Shown here: in pieces, positions 55,795 through 64,000 of the stretch
Numbering within the stretch: the stretch's first letter is position 1
Layout of the letters: each line of letters opens with the position of its first letter
Source: Polynucleobacter sp. AP-Melu-500A-A1
Lineage (GTDB): Bacteria > Pseudomonadota > Gammaproteobacteria > Burkholderiales > Burkholderiaceae
Direction of reading: 5' to 3'
Assembly: GCF_018882125.1 (NCBI RefSeq)
Contig: NZ_JACVOZ010000003.1
Coordinates: 372,001 to 436,000, forward strand
Length of the DNA: 64,000 nt
Notes under the pieces: generated by a model
Database searches by the model: none
The model's input: only the letters and a program-made list of their open reading frames with translations
Told to the model about the DNA's origin: nothing
Translations under genes and position numbers: made by a program

Positions 55795-56153
55795 GGGGTC
55801 GACATGGTTTCGACGTGGATTACAAAGCATCAAGGGCATACCGAGGACCCGTTATCTCGTAAATCAATGGGAATGTAATAACTGCTAACGACGAACGTTA
55901 CGCACTAGCCGCTTAAATGCGGTTGCCCCTGAACTGATTCTCTCTTGGGTCAGGTAGCGCAAGCTACATCAGGGTCATTTACAAGAGATAAGACTATTTC
56001 GTGTCACGGGGAATAGTACGAAAACTTAGTGAATCGTCAGCGTGGAACATGTCAATCTGTGACTAGCCGACTAAATTAAATGATATGACTAAGTATGTAG
56101 AACTTGTTGTGGAGGATTTGCGGACGCGGGTTCGATTCCCGCCGACTCCACCA
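55795..56153 (+). ncRNA. ssrA: Transfer-messenger RNA (tmRNA)
   Basis: A single-piece 359-nt tmRNA. The 5' end GGGGTCG pairs with 3' CGACTCC next to the ACCA end to form the acceptor stem. The T-arm GGGTTCGATTCCC is intact. The tag frame at 55884-55916 reads ANDERYALAA followed by TAA, close to the E. coli tag ANDENYALAA. It rescues stalled ribosomes with SmpB. Its 3' end is the likely integration site of the neighbouring island. Confidence 0.97.
56131..56153 (+). other. Candidate integration site (att core) in the tmRNA 3' end
   Basis: The last 23 bases of tmRNA (T-arm to CCA) are the usual target of P4-type integrases. The integrase gene starts 175 bp beyond. The second att copy is not in the window, so the exact core cannot be fixed. 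Confidence 0.5.
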
Positions 56154-56328: not shown

Positions 56329-57591
56329 ATGCTTACTGAAATCGCTTGCAAATCCGCCACATGCCCGCCTGATAAGGCTCTCAAGCGCTTTGCTGATTCA
56401 GAAGGTCTCTACCTAGAGGTGAGAAAAAATGGGGGTAAGTATTGGTTTTGGAAATATCGCATCCATAACAATGGCAAGCTGGTGGAAAAAAGGCTTGCCC
56501 TGGGGGTCTATCCCAAAGTACCCAAAGAAGAGGCTAGAGAAAAGCGTAATGAGGCTAAAAAGCTACTGGGACAAGGTAAAGATCCATCCCATCTCAAAAA
56601 GGTCGAGAAACAAGGTCGTCAAAGGGCTATTGGGGAAACATTTCAAGATATAGCGCTCGATTGGTACAAAACAAAGAAATCGGCCTGGAGTGATAGTCAT
56701 GCGGGTAGAACACTGCGTCAAATGGAGCGAGATCTATTCCCATGGATCGGCGATCGACCCATGAAAGAAATCACCGGCAATGAAATTCTCTTTGCCTTGA
56801 GAAAAGTAGAAGATCGTGGCGCAGTAGAAACCGCCGATCGAAACCTCATGATCTGTCGCCAAATTTGGGAGTACGTTGCGCTTGATGAAATTCCAGATGC
56901 CACTAGAGGAATCAAAGCAAAACTCAAACCTTATCGCGGCAAAACTCTTCCGGCCATCACCGACCCTAAACGCTTTGCACAGCTACTTGTAGCTATAGAT
57001 GGCTACTCAGGTACTCCAGTTGTTAAAGCAGCCTTGAAGCTCGCTCCCATCCTCTTCCAGCGGCCACTTAATTTGCGAACGATGCAATGGAGTCATCTCA
57101 ACTTAGAAGAAGGTATTTGGACCATTCCTTCGATGGAGATGAAGCGCGAAAAATATGAAAAAGAAAATGGTGAAGATCATTTAGTTCCGCTACCGAAACA
57201 AGCTATTGAGATTCTGAAAGAAGTAAAGCGCTACACGGGAAAAAGCATCTATGTATTTAGAGGTGAGCGAACCGCAAATAGCCCAATGAGTGATGGCACC
57301 ATCAACAAAGCCCTTCGCAGTCTAGGGTATGGCGATGAGCAATGCGGTCATGGATTTAGAGCAAGCGGCAGAACAATGCTCGATGAGGTTCTCAATAAAG
57401 ACTGGAGACACCTAGAGGCTCAACTTGCTCACGCAGTTAAAGACGTTAACGGCAAGAGCTATAACCGCACTCAATTTATAAAGCAGAGGGTTGAGTTAAT
57501 GCAGGATTGGGCAGACTATCTAGATAGGATAAAGTCAGAAAAAACAGAAGAAGAATTAAAGCTGTCAGAATATAAAAGTAATGCTCACTAA
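56329..57591 (+). CDS. Tyrosine-type integrase, P4 family (DUF4102 N-terminus)
   Basis: A 420-residue site-specific recombinase. The N-terminal DUF4102-like arm-binding domain (FADSEGLYLEVRKNGGKYW, ALGVYPKV) is followed by the core-binding domain and the catalytic domain. Catalytic residues: Arg in FQRPLNLRTMQW, the His-x-x-Arg pair in GHGFRASGRTML, a second His in LAHAVKDVNGKSYNR, and the nucleophile Tyr in SYNRTQF. The first box has RPLNLR where GmRpgE is commoner, a divergence, but the catalytic set looks complete. Position next to the tmRNA 3' end fits its role in island integration. Confidence 0.92.
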   Translation: MLTEIACKSATCPPDKALKRFADSEGLYLEVRKNGGKYWFWKYRIHNNGKLVEKRLALGVYPKVPKEEAREKRNEAKKLLGQGKDPSHLKKVEKQGRQRAIGETFQDIALDWYKTKKSAWSDSHAGRTLRQMERDLFPWIGDRPMKEITGNEILFALRKVEDRGAVETADRNLMICRQIWEYVALDEIPDATRGIKAKLKPYRGKTLPAITDPKRFAQLLVAIDGYSGTPVVKAALKLAPILFQRPLNLRTMQWSHLNLEEGIWTIPSMEMKREKYEKENGEDHLVPLPKQAIEILKEVKRYTGKSIYVFRGERTANSPMSDGTINKALRSLGYGDEQCGHGFRASGRTMLDEVLNKDWRHLEAQLAHAVKDVNGKSYNRTQFIKQRVELMQDWADYLDRIKSEKTEEELKLSEYKSNAH

Positions 57592-57609: not shown

Positions 57610-57990
57610 ATGACTAAACCTTGCCCCTTTTGCACTTTGCCACCCGAACGAATTATTGACTCTAACGAGTATGGCTTAACAATTCGTGATGGCTTTCCAG
57701 TTTCAACTGGTCATACTTTAATTATTCCCAAAAGACATATTGGCTCATGGTTTGAGATTGACGTTGAAGAGCAGCTTGGCTTATTGGATCTTCTTACTAG
57801 GGCAAAAATAACATTGCAGGATGAATTAAATCCTGATGGTTACAACCTAGGTATTAATGATGGTACTGCAGCTGGTCAAACCGTGCCCCACCTACACATG
57901 CATCTCATCCCCAGATACAAAGGCGACCAAGAAGATCCTAGGGGCGGCGTGAGATGGATTATTCCTGAAAAAGCGAAGTATTGGGAATGA
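57610..57990 (+). CDS. HIT-family nucleotide hydrolase, coupled to the HNH nuclease
   Basis: A 126-residue HIT protein. The N-terminal CPFC pair (PCPFCTLP) could bind zinc. The histidine triad is VPHLHMHLIPRY, with the nucleophile His as the middle residue. The DGFPVSTGHTLIIPKRH segment is typical of HIT hydrolases of the HINT/AP4A-like branch. These act on nucleotide phosphoramidates or dinucleotide polyphosphates. Its TGA overlaps the ATG of the next gene (ATGA), indicating translational coupling with the endonuclease. It starts 18 bp after the integrase stop. A role in the same defence module is an inference. Confidence 0.88.
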   Translation: MTKPCPFCTLPPERIIDSNEYGLTIRDGFPVSTGHTLIIPKRHIGSWFEIDVEEQLGLLDLLTRAKITLQDELNPDGYNLGINDGTAAGQTVPHLHMHLIPRYKGDQEDPRGGVRWIIPEKAKYWE

Positions 57991-59396
57991 CTAATTCTGA
58001 AATCCTCAAACTCTTTAGCTCAATTAATTGTGCAAGACTAGGTGATAGTTATGCGCCGCACAAGCCAATTCTGATTTTGTTATTGCTTGAAAGAATTCTG
58101 AACGGCCATTCCAATAGCTTTTCATTTACAGAGCTTGATCATGATCTCAAAAAATGGCTTGAGAAGTATGGCTCTAACAATGCCTCAAATACCCGTAATG
58201 AGCCCTTCTGGCGCTTAAAGAATGATGGGGTATGGGATATCACTGCACCATCTGAGTTGAGCTCACTGAGTGGCACCCCCACCCCCAAGCAACTGATTGA
58301 AGCTAATGTCTCCGCACAACTTAAAGATGACCTTTATCAGGGAATCAGAAACAACCCAGAACTGATTGCGGAGATTGCCAAGGCCCTTGTCACTCAGTTT
58401 ATATCTGAGCCCTTACAGCCAACCTTACTAGCTGATGCTGCACCAACAATAAAACTACTAGATCGGCAATATTGGTGGGTCAGTCAAAATCAAACCTACA
58501 AGCATGAAGTTCCAGGGAACTTCATGTGGTCACCCAAAACAAATTCAAGGGGTGGCAGAGTTCCTTCATATGACTTTATGGAAGAAATGAAGGTAGGAGA
58601 TATCGTATTTTCATTTGCCGATACCTATATCAAAGCAATTGGGGTGGTAACCAGCCCCGCACAGTCCAGTGTTAAACCTGACTTTGGTAGTGCAGGTGCT
58701 AATTGGTCGGATGATGGCTGGCTAGTAGATGTTGCATTTCAAGAATTGGGTATGGCGCAATTTAGACCTAGAGAGCATATGGGACTGTTAAGCCCTACGC
58801 TGCCTGATTTACTCTCACCCATTCGTCCCGATGGATCTGGTAACCAAATTTATTTGGCAAAGATTTCAGGGGAGATGGCTGATGTACTAATAGCCCTGTC
58901 TAGAGGCGTGGGAGATTCGATTGTTGATGAGTTATCTCAAAATCTAGATTTTGTTCCCCCCAACGATGAAATCGCAGAAGTTGATGAAATCATCATGAGA
59001 ACCGATATTGGTCCAACTCAAAAAACCCAAATTATTAATTCAAGACGTGGCCAGGGGGTTTTCAAAGCACAAGTCAGACAAATTGAGAGAGTTTGCAGGG
59101 TTACTAAAGTAGCAAATCCAAGGCACCTCATTGCAAGCCACATTAAGCCGTGGAAAAAGTCAAATGATGCTGAAAAAATTAGTGGGTATAACGGCCTACT
59201 GTTGGCGCCACATATAGATCACTTATTTGATAAGGGTTTTATTTCTTTTGAGGGAAATGGCAATTTAATTCTTTCGAGCCAATTAGACAATTCTGTTCTA
59301 GATAAATGGTGTATTGATAAGAACATCAATGTAGGTAGCTTTAGGAATGAGCAGCAACAGTTTTTGGAGTACCACAGGGATGTGGTTATGGTATGA
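57987..59396 (+). CDS. Three-domain HNH endonuclease (predicted modification-dependent, type IV)
   Basis: A 469-residue protein with an ATG start coupled to the HIT gene. Residues 8-140 contain YAPHKPILILLLLERIL and an FWRLKNDGVW segment, which resemble the sulfur-binding domain of ScoMcrA-type nucleases. Residues 160-300 look like an EVE/PUA-like modified-base reader (QYWWVSQNQTYKHEVPGNF, MKVGDIVFSF, YLAKISGEMADVLIAL). Residues 355-425 are an HNH_2 nuclease domain with His385 (ASHIKPW), Asn402 and His412 (HIDHLFDKG). This suggests cutting of foreign modified DNA. Domain assignments are by pattern recall, not by search; the HNH call is the surest. Confidence 0.8.
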   Translation: MTNSEILKLFSSINCARLGDSYAPHKPILILLLLERILNGHSNSFSFTELDHDLKKWLEKYGSNNASNTRNEPFWRLKNDGVWDITAPSELSSLSGTPTPKQLIEANVSAQLKDDLYQGIRNNPELIAEIAKALVTQFISEPLQPTLLADAAPTIKLLDRQYWWVSQNQTYKHEVPGNFMWSPKTNSRGGRVPSYDFMEEMKVGDIVFSFADTYIKAIGVVTSPAQSSVKPDFGSAGANWSDDGWLVDVAFQELGMAQFRPREHMGLLSPTLPDLLSPIRPDGSGNQIYLAKISGEMADVLIALSRGVGDSIVDELSQNLDFVPPNDEIAEVDEIIMRTDIGPTQKTQIINSRRGQGVFKAQVRQIERVCRVTKVANPRHLIASHIKPWKKSNDAEKISGYNGLLLAPHIDHLFDKGFISFEGNGNLILSSQLDNSVLDKWCIDKNINVGSFRNEQQQFLEYHRDVVMV

Positions 59397-59435: not shown

Positions 59436-59882
59436 TTAGGCTCTAGCCCTTAAATAACGGACAACAGTTTCCCAGTCAGGAAACTCAGGGGTGGCAAAGT
59501 GAATATGCTCACCCTTGAATCGATCTACCCCATTCTTAAGACGATCATCCACCAAGAAATCTCCATCATTCAGATTCTTATGGTGGCTTAGGATTAAGCG
59601 TTTATATGCTGGCTTACCCAGATAGTCTTTCACCCATAGCAGCTTATCGGACCATGCACTTGGGTTATCCCATGGTGCAGTTGAAAGAATATAGGTGTCG
59701 AACATGGTAGCCAACTCTTCGTACGCAGCAATTGCACCCGGGATTGGATCCATTAAATAGAAGATGCCAGGGACTTCATCCAATCGATCTTCGTACTGAT
59801 CTTGTATATGCTCAGGGGTTCTTGCGATTCCTGATGGAAAATCCACCAATACATTATCCATATCTATGTAGAGTGTTTTCAT
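59436..59882 (-). CDS. HAD-type 5'-nucleotidase (deoxyribonucleotidase-like)
   Basis: A 148-residue HAD hydrolase. The catalytic start is YIDMDNVLVDFPSG, with two Asp residues in DMDNV, and the STAPWDNP segment supplies the second motif. FLVDDRLKNGVDRF gives the acidic metal motif. The family (NT5C / YorS-like) dephosphorylates nucleoside or deoxynucleoside monophosphates. It is the last gene of the leftward block after hsdR and the YgjP-like peptidase, 15 bp behind the latter. Participation in the restriction system is possible but unproven. Confidence 0.8.
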   Translation of the reverse strand: MKTLYIDMDNVLVDFPSGIARTPEHIQDQYEDRLDEVPGIFYLMDPIPGAIAAYEELATMFDTYILSTAPWDNPSAWSDKLLWVKDYLGKPAYKRLILSHHKNLNDGDFLVDDRLKNGVDRFKGEHIHFATPEFPDWETVVRYLRARA

Positions 59883-59897
59883 CCTTTAACCTCCGAG

Positions 59898-60614
59898 TTA
59901 ATATGCCCAGCTCTCATGCCTCACTGGCAAACTATTTAGTAACTGTCGATGAGACTGCCACTTAGGCATATAGTGATCCATTAACTGGATAAATCGATCG
60001 TTATGCGACGGCTCTAACAAATGAACCAGCTCGTGAACAACAACATATTCTAAGCACTCTCGGGGCTTTTTTGCCAAATCCGTATTCAATCGAATGGTTC
60101 TGGCATGGGGATTACAACTACCCCATTTAGTTTTCATGCGTCTCACAAAAAAACCATTCACCTGAACACCAATTTTCTTTTCCCACTTCTGTAAGATGCC
60201 CGGGAGAGCTTCAGCAAGTTGAACCCTATACCAAGAATCAAGCAATTCATGCTTCTTATCTTCATGCCAGGCCGGACGAACCCGAACAATTATGTGCTTA
60301 TTATTTAGCGAGATTGACGCTGCAACATCGCTTTTAATCACTTTCATCAAATAGCGTTCGCCCCATACATAATGACTTTCGCGATTGATAATTTCACGTG
60401 GCGTCTCGCGATCTTGTGACTTCATTAGTGCCTGCTGTTGACGAATCCAGCCGACCTTGGCAACAGCAAATATGCGAATGGTATCCAGCTCCATGTGCAT
60501 TGGGGCCGAAATAGTAACGCGCCCAATGGGTGGATGCACGCTAAGGTGCACATTCTTAATATTTTTACGGACAACTTCCACAGCCATCTCACCAATTTGA
60601 ATCTGCGATTTCAT
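59898..60614 (-). CDS. YgjP-like (SprT/DUF45) zinc metallopeptidase
   Basis: A 238-residue protein. The metal site HELVHLLEPSHNDRF has HExxH with a further downstream His. The preceding block TKWGSCNPHARTIRLNTDL is typical of DUF45. These peptidases are often encoded next to type I restriction genes; the function there is not established. Its ATG overlaps the hsdR stop by one base (TGATG), so the two are translationally coupled. Confidence 0.87.
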   Translation of the reverse strand: MKSQIQIGEMAVEVVRKNIKNVHLSVHPPIGRVTISAPMHMELDTIRIFAVAKVGWIRQQQALMKSQDRETPREIINRESHYVWGERYLMKVIKSDVAASISLNNKHIIVRVRPAWHEDKKHELLDSWYRVQLAEALPGILQKWEKKIGVQVNGFFVRRMKTKWGSCNPHARTIRLNTDLAKKPRECLEYVVVHELVHLLEPSHNDRFIQLMDHYMPKWQSHRQLLNSLPVRHESWAY

Positions 60615-63600
60615 CAGTATTCAGTCTGGGCAACAATGATAGAAAAAATACGCTCTACTTCAGCCTGGTCATTCCCAAGAATGGGCATAAGCGCTGCCTT
60701 TATTACCCTCTCCTTGGCCAAATTTCCCCGGAAGGAGTCGGGTCGAACATGCTTCACCATCGCATCAATTTGGAGTGCCAGCGCTTCATTGCCGCCTAGG
60801 TTATTAAATAAGGCTCTTTTACCGGCGGTGTTAAGTGCAATCGGAGTATCTTTCGCTGCACCAACCTGAACTTGCTTAGCAATATCAGCAATCCGCTTTA
60901 AAAATTCCTCATAACTTATCTGTTGCTGGCGTAAATGATCCAAGACTTCTATCAATAAGACTGACATCTTGTCGTAGAACGCCGGGTCATTGAGGTGTTT
61001 TTTTATAATTTTGCTTCGAATATTATTAGCAATGGTTTCCGAAACTGACTGTGAATTTTTCTTAATGCCTTTTGGTAGATTATTAATGGCTTCAGCGATT
61101 CCACTTTTAACGATCAGATCTAGAAGGCCCGTTTCGCCAAAATCAGATATTTCTCTCGGCTCTGAAGCCTCAATATATGTGTCAATTAAATGGCGCATAT
61201 CTGCCTCATACGCCTTTAGGTCAATAGTTTCGCCGCTAGCCTGGCGAATAATCTCGCGCAACTTCAAATAGACATCGATTTCACGTTTAATCTTCTCGAT
61301 TTCAGTTTGGGTATAGCCTGCCTTAGACATTTCATCCGCAATATTCGCATATGCACGAACCAATGCTACCGTCGCCTGATAGAGTGCAACGCGTTGTGGT
61401 TCTGTAGCCTTGAGATCATCGACTTTTTCAGTATTCCCGCAAAAGTAGTGAATATGCTCCAACTCCCCTTGGGGTGGCTGCACTGGCTCGCACAATAATG
61501 CAATTCCTTCTAAGGCTCCATCCAGTCGTTGACGACCTTTCTTTAACCGATCTTGCAAAATGATATCGGGACTGCCTCCCCCCGCATCATCATGATCAAC
61601 TTCTGAGGTGTATACAGAAATTGCACCCTGTACTTTATTAAACAAATCTTTGTAATCGACAATATAGCCAAAGGGCTTATCGTCTCCATCGAGACGATTA
61701 GTTCGACAAATAGCTTGGAATAAGCCATGGTCTTGCATGGATTTATCGATATACAGATAGGTGCAATGTGGAGCGTCAAACCCGGTAAGCAATTTATCCA
61801 CCACAATCAATAAGCACATATTCGCAGGCTGATCTTTGAATAAATTCTTAGCCCAGTCCTCGTAGGTCTCGGTTTTACTCTTGTTGGAGGCTGGCTCAAC
61901 TTCTTTAAGTAGCGCAGTGTAAGTGTTATACAAAAACTGCTTATCCGTCTCGCTATTTGCCCCGGTCTCTTCTAGAGTCACATCCTGAGCTTGAGGGTTG
62001 TAAGAGGTGATAACTGCGCATTTTCCTTTAAATACTGTCTTTTGAAATAGTTCGTAGTACTTACAGGCATCGTAAATACTTGCCGCTACAAGAATTGCGT
62101 TACCTCTCTCGCTTGATAATCGCGGCTTAACACCAAAATCAAATACGATGTCGCTTACTATTCGCTCCATTCGTGAACGCGAGCTAACTACGTTTTGCAT
62201 TGTTCCCCACTGATTACGCAACGCAGCTTTCTGCCAATTATTTAGCCCCTTAGTCTTCGCCTCAAACCATGCATCAACTTTGTCTTGAGAGCCAAGACTT
62301 TGCTCAACATCACGGGCTTCATAAATAAGATCAAGTACGACCCCGTCCTCTACCCCCTCATCAAACTTATAGGTGTGGATATAACCGCCAAAAACCTCAA
62401 GAGTTGTCGCCTTGTCTTCCTTAAGCAATGGTGTACCAGTAAAACCAATAAAGACTGCTCCGGGTAGCATCGCTTTCATAAGCTGATTTAGCTTTCCGCT
62501 TTGCGTGCGGTGGCATTCATCCACGAAAACAAATAGCTCACCCACAGCAAGGGGTGGCTGCTTCTTTAACTCTTCAATGAAAGCATCGAAATTTTCAACA
62601 CCCTGCTTACCAAACTTATGTACAAGAGAACAAAGCAATCGAGGCTTAGCCTGCCCCAGCTGCTTCATTAGATCCTGACCGCTATTGGTGCGGTGAATAT
62701 CTTCACCGCTGCCTTTGAATACGCCCTCAATCTGCTTGTCTAGCTCATCCCGATCTGTCAATATCAGAATACGAGCATTAGGCTTATTCTCAAGTATCCA
62801 TTTCGCCAGCAATACCATCACAATGCTCTTACCGCTACCTTGCGTATGCCAAATAATGCCGCTCTTATAGGAGTTGACATTGATTTGCGCAGCCTTGATA
62901 CCAAAATATTGGTGAACACGAGGCAGCTTTTTAATGCCACCATCAAAAAGAACAAAGTCGTGAATCAGCTCGAGCAAGCGCTGTTTAGAACACATCTTAA
63001 GCAGATATTTATCCAACTTAAAGAGCTTGTTATCAGCCTCATCCTCTTTCCAGCCTAAAAAGAACTTCTCTTCTGTGCCGATTGTTCCGTAACGAAGTCC
63101 TTCGGAATCATTTCCAGCGAAGACGATTTGCACTGTTGAGAAAAACCACTCATTGAAGTCTTTTCTCTGATTGGAGAGTAATTGTCGAATACCATCGCCA
63201 ATGGATGTGCGACTATTTTTTAGCTCAATAACTCCAACTGCTATGCCATTAACATACAAGACTAAATCTGGGCGACGCTCTAAATTGCCCCGTAAGGTAA
63301 CTTCCTCAGCTATCGAGAAATCATTATTTTCTGGATGGCTCCAGTCAATGAATTTAACTGTATCTGAAACAGAGCTAGCGTCGACCTTAACGTCAACACC
63401 GTAGCGCAATAAGCTGTAGACCGCTTTATTGTTGTCATACAGACTGCGGTTTGGATTATTTGCTTCGGCTCTTAAAAAATATATTGCGCGACTAATTTGA
63501 TCAGCAGTGTAACCGCGAGATATGAGATGGGGGACAAGCAAATCTTCCTCAATATTGCTATTTGTTTGATCACTTTTATCACCAAGATATCTGTAACCCA

Positions 63601-63667
63601 GTTCTCTTTTAAATAGCGAAACAACTCTGTTTTGCGTAGCCCTCTCTGGCAATCCAATGGTACTCAT
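60614..63667 (-). CDS. hsdR: Type I restriction endonuclease subunit R
   Basis: A 1017-residue motor-nuclease. The N-terminal nuclease has PDLVLYVNGIAVGVIELKN (PD...ExK type). The helicase has Walker A HTQGSGKSIVMVLL, the DEAD-like box VFVDECHRTQSGK and motif III FIGFTGTPLL, then motif VI in ICRTNRLDGDDKPFG. A long C-terminal helical region binds the methyltransferase core. It translocates DNA and cuts at random sites in unmethylated DNA. Its start overlaps the hsdS stop by four bases (ATGA). Confidence 0.95.
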   Translation of the reverse strand: MSTIGLPERATQNRVVSLFKRELGYRYLGDKSDQTNSNIEEDLLVPHLISRGYTADQISRAIYFLRAEANNPNRSLYDNNKAVYSLLRYGVDVKVDASSVSDTVKFIDWSHPENNDFSIAEEVTLRGNLERRPDLVLYVNGIAVGVIELKNSRTSIGDGIRQLLSNQRKDFNEWFFSTVQIVFAGNDSEGLRYGTIGTEEKFFLGWKEDEADNKLFKLDKYLLKMCSKQRLLELIHDFVLFDGGIKKLPRVHQYFGIKAAQINVNSYKSGIIWHTQGSGKSIVMVLLAKWILENKPNARILILTDRDELDKQIEGVFKGSGEDIHRTNSGQDLMKQLGQAKPRLLCSLVHKFGKQGVENFDAFIEELKKQPPLAVGELFVFVDECHRTQSGKLNQLMKAMLPGAVFIGFTGTPLLKEDKATTLEVFGGYIHTYKFDEGVEDGVVLDLIYEARDVEQSLGSQDKVDAWFEAKTKGLNNWQKAALRNQWGTMQNVVSSRSRMERIVSDIVFDFGVKPRLSSERGNAILVAASIYDACKYYELFQKTVFKGKCAVITSYNPQAQDVTLEETGANSETDKQFLYNTYTALLKEVEPASNKSKTETYEDWAKNLFKDQPANMCLLIVVDKLLTGFDAPHCTYLYIDKSMQDHGLFQAICRTNRLDGDDKPFGYIVDYKDLFNKVQGAISVYTSEVDHDDAGGGSPDIILQDRLKKGRQRLDGALEGIALLCEPVQPPQGELEHIHYFCGNTEKVDDLKATEPQRVALYQATVALVRAYANIADEMSKAGYTQTEIEKIKREIDVYLKLREIIRQASGETIDLKAYEADMRHLIDTYIEASEPREISDFGETGLLDLIVKSGIAEAINNLPKGIKKNSQSVSETIANNIRSKIIKKHLNDPAFYDKMSVLLIEVLDHLRQQQISYEEFLKRIADIAKQVQVGAAKDTPIALNTAGKRALFNNLGGNEALALQIDAMVKHVRPDSFRGNLAKERVIKAALMPILGNDQAEVERIFSIIVAQTEY

Positions 63668-64000
63668 ATCAAGCGTGTCTTTCCTGTGAGTAATTCTTGC
63701 ATCATGCCCTGTTTGAGGTTGAACGTTTTACTCCTCAGAGCCTCAAGCGATGCAACTTCAATATCCATATCAGTAAGAATCTCAGCAATAGCATCTTGTT
63801 CGGGTAACTCAGGCATCGAAAACGCCAGAGATTCAATGCTACTAGGCTTTAAATTATTGATACTAGATCCAGCTAGAAGATTATTAATGTAATTACGATA
63901 TAAGCCTGTCTGAAATAGATAAAAGATAAATTTTGGATTTGCCTCGGTATATATGGAGCGAAAGCAGGCCATAAAGGAGCCAAACGTATATTCATAACCA
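63664..64000 (-). CDS. hsdS: Type I restriction specificity subunit S (C-terminal part, runs off the right edge)
   Basis: About 111 codons are present, open to the window edge (GYEYTFGSFMACFRSIYTEA read from the end). This is the closing part of the second target-recognition domain (FGSFMACFR), then INNLKPSSIESLAFSMPELP and a coiled-coil C-terminal helix (ILTDMDIEVASLEALRSKTF with MQELLTGKTRL). This is a standard HsdS end. It sets the recognition sequence. The methyltransferase gene hsdM should lie to the right of the window. Confidence 0.9.
   Translation of the reverse strand, partial: GYEYTFGSFMACFRSIYTEANPKFIFYLFQTGLYRNYINNLLAGSSINNLKPSSIESLAFSMPELPEQDAIAEILTDMDIEVASLEALRSKTFNLKQGMMQELLTGKTRLI

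What the first reader, a model, noticed from the sequence alone, without database searches (positions are those of the whole stretch)
57610..59396. HIT hydrolase translationally fused in operon with a dual-reader HNH nuclease
The two genes overlap by ATGA within an integrase-bearing island. The nuclease appears to combine a sulfur-binding-like region, an EVE/PUA-like reader and an HNH_2 domain, a modification-dependent restriction plan. Pairing it with a HIT nucleotide hydrolase is not a partnership I know. The HIT protein might supply, remove or sense a nucleotide signal, or undo adenylylation by a repair-like intermediate. This is the best candidate for an undescribed defence pair.
Basis: partly seen in the sequence, partly recalled or inferred. 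Interest (0 to 1): 0.68.

Follow-up and report, generated by a model that had tools for sequence, protein, structure and literature searches.

The report
HIT hydrolase paired with dual-reader nuclease
A bacterium carries a small nucleotide-hydrolysing enzyme whose gene overlaps that of a DNA-cutting enzyme with two different sensors for chemically modified DNA, and this partnership recurs in other bacteria, which points to a two-gene form of defence against modified foreign DNA whose second enzyme has no known role yet.

Summary
A HIT gene (57610-57990) overlaps by ATGA a 469-aa nuclease gene (57987-59396). The nuclease is a phosphorothioate-type sulfur-binding domain (SBD, residues 1-152) joined to a complete VcaM4I-like EVE-HNH endonuclease (161-467). 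The published EVE-pocket and HNH catalytic residues are conserved, as are the SBD His/Lys/Pro (not its Tyr lid).

The pair recurs. The 4 other full-length SBD-EVE-HNH loci found in 186 genomes of the genus all have the HIT gene. HIT sits beside 25 of 80 SBD loci kept from a genome-collection scan. In whole-genome searches it lies near 10 of 17 SBD-bearing loci against 1 of 53 without SBD (0 of 11 with EVE but no SBD). HIT also pairs with an unrelated HNH_4 nuclease family and occurs fused to HNH_5 and to PLD-helicase proteins.

Best reading: a two-gene modification-dependent (type IV) restriction cassette. The nuclease's role is well supported by homology. The HIT role is inferred: I favour clean-up of nucleoside 5'-phosphorothioates or other odd nucleotides, since human HINT1 does that chemistry, but its other partners weaken a sulfur-only reading. 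My searches found no paper on the pair or on SBD-EVE-HNH. New variant of a known kind.

The parts
57610..57990 (+). HIT-family nucleotide hydrolase/transferase gene, 126 aa, triad motif HLHMHLIP starting at residue 94
   Evidence: Pfam PF01230 1.5e-22; PADLOC ThsC 1.2e-10; PDB HIT chains, best 2eo4 1.2e-17; motif position
57987..57990 (+). ATGA overlap of the HIT stop and the nuclease start
   Evidence: sequence; same 4-bp spacing attainable in 26 of 35 HIT-SBD pairs, taking for each pair the in-frame start nearest to that spacing
57987..59396 (+). SBD-EVE-HNH endonuclease gene, 469 aa
57987..58442 (+). sulfur-binding domain, residues 1-152; H25, K26 and P73 match ScoMcrA H116, R117 and P165; E72 stands where ScoMcrA has the lid Y164
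   Evidence: NF045808 1.1e-33, 5zmo 1.9e-7, alignments, AF2 model pLDDT 89.0 and Foldseek, residues from PMC6224610 passages
58464..58907 (+). EVE domain, about residues 160-307; Q169 T170 E174 W181 P183 W240 Q287 Y289 match VcaM4I Q10 T11 E15 W22 P24 W82 Q128 Y130
   Evidence: phmmer alignment to 6yex, residues from PMC7897488 passages, positions checked
59004..59393 (+). HNH_2 nuclease domain, about residues 340-469; H385 N402 D411 D415 match VcaM4I H224 N241 D250 D254
   Evidence: PF13391 2e-10; 6yex alignment; PMC7897488 passages; positions
56329..57591 (+). integrase gene just upstream, beside tmRNA: context, not part of the pair
   Evidence: Pfam Phage_integrase 1.7e-10 and Arm-DNA-bind_3 9e-22; tmRNA 55795-56153

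Best explanation
[quoted passage not shown] The nuclease is the sensor and the cutter: SBD reads a phosphorothioate (PT) linkage, EVE flips out and reads 5mC/5hmC, and the HNH dimer cuts incoming DNA carrying such marks (inferred from homology to solved and tested enzymes; about 0.85 that it is a modification-dependent endonuclease). HIT is co-translated with it and serves it (about 0.7 that the link is functional). My best guess for HIT is nucleotide clean-up: when cut PT-DNA is degraded to mononucleotides, the sulfur ends up on nucleoside 5'-phosphorothioates, and a HIT enzyme can turn these into normal dNMP plus sulfide, keeping the pool usable and free of sulfur nucleotides; a wider form of the same idea is hydrolysis of other unusual nucleotides (about 0.3 for HIT as such a clean-up enzyme). 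Shown here: the domains, the conserved residues, the recurrence and tight gene coupling. Inferred: the DNA marks recognised, restriction in vivo, and everything about the HIT substrate.
For: Domains and folds; eight of eight published EVE pocket/intercalation residues and four of four HNH residues conserved. HIT within 1.5 kb of 10 of 17 SBD-bearing loci vs 1 of 53 without SBD, Fisher p 5e-7 (five of the ten are congeners), and 25 of 80 SBD loci in the collection scan. HIT stays with the SBD although the rest of the nuclease differs: SBD-HNH in most, SBD-EVE-HNH in this genus, while EVE-HNH without SBD has HIT in 0 of 11. HIT and SBD distances correlate, r 0.50 over 31 pairs and 0.55 over 27, 0 of 5000 permutations as high. 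Human HINT1 hydrolyses dGMPS to dGMP and H2S (PMC8775712, passages). Some SBD-HNH genes of this family lie beside Ssp-type PT-writer genes, which supports PT as their mark.
Against: No activity was measured. 55 of 80 SBD loci have no HIT beside them. HIT pairs equally tightly with HNH_4 nucleases that show no similarity to SBD (hhalign probability 0.2%) and is fused to a PLD-helicase of the type IV kind, so sulfur cannot be the whole story. HINT1 is slow on dGMPS: kcat 0.023 per second, about 13 against 274 pmol/min/ug for GMPS. The window SBD lacks the Tyr lid and the RGRR recognition loop of ScoMcrA. HITs 57-62% identical to this one also sit at sites with no nuclease that I recognised.
Confidence: 0.35

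Rival explanations
1. HIT is a regulator or signal enzyme: it makes, removes or senses a nucleotide signal, or de-adenylylates the nuclease, and so switches the nuclease on or off.
For: HIT proteins act on nucleotides generally; the HIT protein matches PADLOC's ThsC, which that model's authors suggest may tune the Thoeris signal (PMC8565338 passages). It would explain pairing with SBD-HNH, HNH_4 and a PLD-helicase alike.
Against: I found no signal-making enzyme in the pair, and the Pfam matches of the five proteins flanking it show none. VcaM4I and EcoWI work as single proteins in the passages read.
Confidence: 0.2
2. HIT acts on DNA ends, like aprataxin: it removes AMP from 5' ends left by aborted ligation at HNH cuts and so influences repair of the cut DNA.
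For: What its partners share is an endonuclease, not a particular reader; the HIT domain of aprataxin removes 5'-AMP from DNA (abstract of PMC4530458 in the listing).
Against: The 126-aa protein is a bare HIT domain with no DNA-binding extension among its Pfam matches; 11 of 11 EVE-HNH loci without SBD lack it.
Confidence: 0.12
3. No working link: a mobile HIT gene travels with nucleases in islands, kept for another purpose or by chance.
For: HIT also occurs without a recognised nuclease next to it: 20 of 30 HIT loci from the order search. Most SBD-HNH genes lack it (55 of 80). In one betaproteobacterial clade a methyltransferase gene sits in its place.
Against: The genes overlap and keep their order over large divergence: 4-bp spacing in 26 of 35 pairs, at least 9 changes of HIT on the SBD tree; fusions with nucleases; the flanks change while the pair stays.
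Confidence: 0.2
4. The SBD no longer reads sulfur and merely helps DNA binding; EVE is the only modification reader, and the enzyme restricts 5mC/5hmC DNA like VcaM4I.
For: Lid Tyr replaced by Glu (E72) and no RGRR loop. The EVE pocket is fully conserved.
Against: H25, K26 and P73, the residues that PMC6224610 reports as most conserved or critical, are invariant in 30 aligned SBDs; the same paper reports the lid Tyr in only 7 of 23 homologues.
Confidence: 0.3

Closest known systems
VcaM4I (EVE-HNH type IV endonuclease, PDB 6yex; PMC7897488)
   Same: whole EVE-linker-HNH architecture, E 2.2e-83 over residues 161-467; pocket and catalytic residues conserved
   Different: the window protein carries an extra N-terminal SBD and has a HIT partner gene; in the 11 loci with an EVE match and no SBD, HIT was absent
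SBD-HNH phosphorothioate-dependent endonucleases (EcoWI group, NF045808; PMC7461809, PMC6224610)
   Same: the N-terminal SBD and its His/Lys/Pro
   Different: the window enzyme has EVE and a VcaM4I-type HNH in place of the SBD-HNH type; it scores under the NF045808 cut-off. E. coli genes of this group have no HIT beside them in the two annotated records seen
ScoMcrA (SBD-SRA-HNH, PDB 5zmm)
   Same: the plan of two readers (SBD plus a base-flipping PUA-superfamily reader) ahead of HNH
   Different: EVE instead of SRA; HIT beside ScoMcrA itself was not examined
Thoeris type II ThsC (HIT protein)
   Same: a HIT protein encoded with a defence system; PADLOC ThsC model match 1.2e-10
   Different: no Thoeris gene among the family matches of the flanking proteins; the partner is an endonuclease
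Human HINT1 (histidine triad hydrolase; PMC8775712)
   Same: HIT fold and triad; HINT1 desulfurates dGMPS
   Different: remote homologue (PDB chains of HINT1 at about 1e-8); activity of the window protein unknown

Membership tests
EVE-HNH modification-dependent endonucleases (VcaM4I) | EVE pocket and intercalating residues Q10 T11 E15 W22 P24 W82 Q128 Y130 | tested here: met
   8 of 8 identical in the alignment
EVE-HNH modification-dependent endonucleases (VcaM4I) | HNH residues H224 N241 D250 D254 | tested here: met
   4 of 4 identical
EVE-HNH modification-dependent endonucleases (VcaM4I) | cuts 5mC/5hmC DNA and restricts phage T4gt | not testable with these tools
   needs protein or cells
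SBD-HNH phosphorothioate-dependent endonucleases (NF045808) | SBD fold | tested here: met
   AF2 model pLDDT 89.0; the 15 Foldseek matches at E <= 0.001 are all SBD structures
SBD-HNH phosphorothioate-dependent endonucleases (NF045808) | sulfur pocket: H116, R/K117, P165 and lid Y164 of ScoMcrA | tested here: inconclusive
   H25, K26, P73 present; Y164 is E72; Tyr is not general in the family
SBD-HNH phosphorothioate-dependent endonucleases (NF045808) | whole-protein score over the curated cut-off of 180 bits | tested here: not met
   116.6 bits; only the N-terminal domain belongs to this family
HIT superfamily | HIT domain with histidine triad | tested here: met
   PF01230 1.5e-22; HLHMHLIP at residue 94; the full triad is conserved in 30 of the 31 paired HITs aligned, L087 having Gln at the first His
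Thoeris type II (ThsC) | ThsA/ThsB genes next to the HIT gene | tested here: not met
   none among the Pfam and PADLOC matches of the flanking proteins scanned
Type IV restriction system | no methyltransferase of its own | tested here: inconclusive
   the pair has none; a separate type I R-M operon (hsdR, hsdS seen) lies downstream on the other strand

The most novel reading that the evidence does not exclude
HIT is a dedicated desulfurase of nucleoside 5'-phosphorothioates coupled to a PT-reading restriction enzyme: a restriction system that carries its own enzyme for removing the sulfur from the DNA it destroys. In this genus the system has gained a second reader for modified cytosine. In other lineages the same HIT module, serving other odd nucleotides, accompanies HNH_4, HNH_5 and PLD-helicase nucleases, so that nucleotide clean-up is a general and overlooked accessory of restriction.
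Probability: 0.2. Interest if true: 0.8.

Novelty: new variant of a known kind. Interest (0 to 1): 0.58.

Why it matters
SBD-HNH and EVE-HNH enzymes are studied as one-protein systems in the papers seen here. A second, co-translated enzyme that recurs beside SBD nucleases, and beside another HNH family, would mean that these systems have an overlooked partner. The HINT1 precedent gives a definite test: does this HIT act on nucleoside 5'-phosphorothioates, and does it matter when PT-DNA is restricted? The SBD-EVE-HNH protein is also a natural candidate for a reader of DNA that bears both a backbone and a base mark.

Tried and rejected
A link of HIT to EVE: rejected, 0 of 11 EVE loci without SBD have HIT within 1.5 kb.

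A strictly sulfur-linked role for HIT: weakened. The HNH_4 partner family (L156, L160, L167, L172, L200, L201, L202, L205) is not detectably related to SBD (probability 0.2%, E 0.35).

Avoidance of self-restriction as evidence: in the four well-assembled genomes with the nuclease (G000, G303, G304, G341) DndC and C5-methylase PF00145 are absent; the fifth (G465, 78% complete) has two PF00145 genes and a DndC-like match under cut-off. PF00145 occurs in only 42 of 186 genomes of the genus, so the absence in four proves nothing. Other PT writers were not searched in these genomes.

A nucleotidase as a second clean-up partner: in E. coli a 5'-nucleotidase gene lies beside an EcoWI-like gene, but the EcoWI-like gene is held (80% or more) by 182 of 5426 genomes and the two-gene stretch by 46, so it is optional cargo. 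The NT5C-like gene beside the window pair is shared only with G304 among the five congener loci, by eye from ORF lists.

Structure of the whole nuclease: the model is poor past residue 155 (mean pLDDT 53.7) for lack of EVE relatives in the permitted alignment; the sequence match to 6yex stands in for it.

Viral contigs: the nuclease query gave 6 pattern matches and no relative; the HIT query gave 15 loci, of which L186 is an HNH_5-HIT fusion; I saw no nuclease partner in the other 14 (ORFs by eye). Phage records: 3 partial matches. Plasmids: 84 records, none covering 80% of the nuclease.

Searches return only their best loci, with 1.5 kb flanks often cut by contig ends. One search covers L001-L041 and L045-L074 with L050 dropped as a duplicate; L035, a gene cut by the contig end, counts among the 53 without SBD. 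Profile A1 was built partly from these loci. Searches left out L050, L155, L157, L159 and L098 as duplicates; one search also dropped one SBD fragment under 100 aa and includes L158, which came from the HIT-side search. Of the 25 HIT loci, L088 is split by a frameshift, L117 is damaged and L119 is a C-terminal remnant.

Literature: searches found no paper on a HIT-HNH pair or an SBD-EVE-HNH protein; the library lacks most subscription journals. Papers were seen as passages (PMC7897488, PMC6224610, PMC7461809, PMC8775712, PMC8565338, PMC10853773, PMC13092281, PMC9521924, PMC8281217, PMC6429109, PMC12707154), as passages and section 9 (PMC7641849), as outline and abstract (PMC12923530), or as a listing abstract (PMC4530458).

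Full report
What is there. The HIT gene (57610-57990) and the nuclease gene (57987-59396) overlap by ATGA. They follow an integrase gene that sits just after tmRNA. Downstream, on the other strand, lie an NT5C-like gene, a YgjP-like metallopeptidase gene and hsdR and hsdS of a type I R-M system.

The nuclease. Residues 1-152 are a sulfur-binding domain: NF045808 1.1e-33 (116.6 bits, below its whole-protein cut-off of 180) and ScoMcrA SBD 1.9e-7. An AF2 model from 30 aligned SBDs has pLDDT 89.0 and pTM 0.85, and its 15 Foldseek matches at E <= 0.001 are all SBD structures (SprMcrA, ScoMcrA, Hga). H25, K26 and P73 stand where ScoMcrA has H116, R117 and P165 and are invariant in the 30 sequences. 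The lid Y164 is E72, and the RGRR loop is absent. Residues 161-467 match VcaM4I at 2.2e-83. All eight EVE residues and all four HNH residues named in the passages of PMC7897488 are identical. So the protein is a complete VcaM4I-type enzyme with an SBD in front. SBD and EVE in one reading frame were seen only in this genus: in the window and four congeners; none of the 80 SBD loci has an EVE match.

Recurrence in the genus. Of 186 genomes (window's included), four others hold the full-length protein at 68-93% identity, and all four have the HIT gene upstream at 79-85% identity. The surroundings change: G304 shares the right flank of the window (NT5C, YgjP, HsdR); G341, G303 and G465 do not (ORFs by eye). 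The pair therefore moves as a unit.

Recurrence beyond the genus. In loci from three whole-genome searches not selected on HIT (70 loci), HIT lies within 1.5 kb of 10 of 17 SBD-bearing loci and 1 of 53 others, the one being an HNH_5-HIT fusion (L038); Fisher p 5e-7. Five of the ten are from the window's genus, so the loci are not all independent. EVE without SBD: 0 of 11. In the genome-contig scan with an SBD alignment that held both HIT-bearing and HIT-lacking members, 25 of the 80 loci kept have HIT upstream, mostly in betaproteobacteria; 55 do not, among them the Poribacteria, Pontibacter and most Planctomycetes loci. On the SBD tree (99 rows, 35 with HIT) HIT presence changes at least 9 times, and 26 of the 35 pairs can have the 4-bp overlap (the in-frame start nearest that spacing was taken). 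HIT and SBD distances correlate (r 0.50, 31 pairs; 0.55, 27 pairs; 0 of 5000 permutations as high), without correction for species relatedness.

From the HIT side. Of 300 genomes of the order, 46 have a HIT at E <= 1e-25. Of the 30 loci returned, 4 are next to SBD nucleases (the window's included), 5 next to an HNH_4 nuclease (L156, L160, L162, L167, L172) and 1 (L184) is fused to a PLD-helicase that matches PADLOC's type IV restriction models at 6.7e-73. I recognised no nuclease next to the other 20, without scanning all their neighbours against a library. The HNH_4 family, searched on its own, gave 8 loci, 4 of them with HIT. On plasmids, 12 of 18 HIT-bearing records were looked at: 4 have a nuclease of this family beside HIT (L200 Polaromonas, L201 Aromatoleum, and with the gene order reversed L202 Hymenobacter and L205 Persicobacter; the last two placed in the family by alignment only). 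The HNH_4 family shows no relation to SBD. HITs of the partner classes mix on a weakly supported HIT tree (5 of 55 inner branches starred). So the durable theme is a HIT module with a restriction-type nuclease, SBD-HNH being the commonest partner seen here.

How it may work. The nuclease should act as a modification-dependent endonuclease. For HIT I weighed four ideas. Clean-up of odd nucleotides fits the SBD link chemically: degradation of PT-DNA to 5'-mononucleotides would leave sulfur on the 5'-phosphate (inference), and HINT1 converts dGMPS to dGMP and H2S (PMC8775712, passages), though slowly. Some SBD-HNH genes lie beside Ssp-type PT-writer genes (representatives SspD 5.3e-116 and SspC 1125 bits), which supports PT as the mark for the family. 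Against a sulfur-only role stand the HNH_4 and PLD-helicase partners and the 55 SBD loci without HIT. Signal control, repair of adenylated ends and mere hitch-hiking remain open.

Self-avoidance gives no help: absence of DndC and of C5-methylases in the four well-assembled carriers is expected when only 42 of 186 congeners have PF00145.

Known and new. SBD-HNH, EVE-HNH and SBD-SRA-HNH enzymes are known (PMC7461809, PMC7897488, PMC6224610; passages). A HIT protein (ThsC) is known from 167 Thoeris systems (PMC8565338, passages). I found neither SBD-EVE-HNH nor a HIT-HNH pair in the library. Verdict: a new variant of type IV restriction with an unexplained, recurrent nucleotide-hydrolase partner.

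Noticed in passing
L108, L109, L113, L122, L126, L132, L142, L154; L103, L120, L122, L132, L142: SBD-HNH genes (seven loci titled Poribacteria, one Gemmatimonadetes) within 3.5 kb of a PAPS-reductase-like gene; the representative (L132) matches SspD at 5.3e-116. Five loci have a large P-loop gene whose representative (L120) matches SspC (1125 bits). An Ssp-type PT writer with an SBD-HNH nuclease; only the representatives were scanned.
   Followed up: partly
L086, L089, L100, L102: In one betaproteobacterial SBD-HNH clade without HIT, a SAM methyltransferase gene lies directly upstream where HIT is in its relatives (Pfam for L089 and L102; L086 and L100 by eye).
   Followed up: partly
L042:6954-7919 and E. 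coli genomes: A 5'-nucleotidase gene that matches PADLOC candidate PDC-S08 (4.6e-134) lies beside an EcoWI-like gene; the two-gene stretch is in 46 of 5426 E. coli genomes, the EcoWI-like gene in 182.
   Followed up: yes
L038:363-1361 and L186:2356-3387: HNH_5-HIT fusion proteins, one in a genome of the window's genus and one in a viral contig.
   Followed up: partly
L184:1486-3366: HIT domain fused to a PLD-helicase resembling type IV (mREase_IV) models; the reading frame runs past the locus end.
   Followed up: partly
window 59436-63999 (-): NT5C-like nucleotidase, YgjP-like metallopeptidase, hsdR and hsdS in a row; the first three recur in the same order in G304 next to the pair (L223).
   Followed up: partly
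L202:4847-6354 (Hymenobacter canadensis plasmid): Beside an HNH-HIT pair lies a Nudix-type pyrophosphohydrolase gene followed by a DEAD/DEAH helicase gene: a second nucleotide enzyme next to a defence-like gene (annotation only).
   Followed up: no
L119:5570-5935: A remnant of the C-terminal part of HIT upstream of an SBD-HNH gene in a Myxococcales contig, suggesting a lost partner.
   Followed up: no
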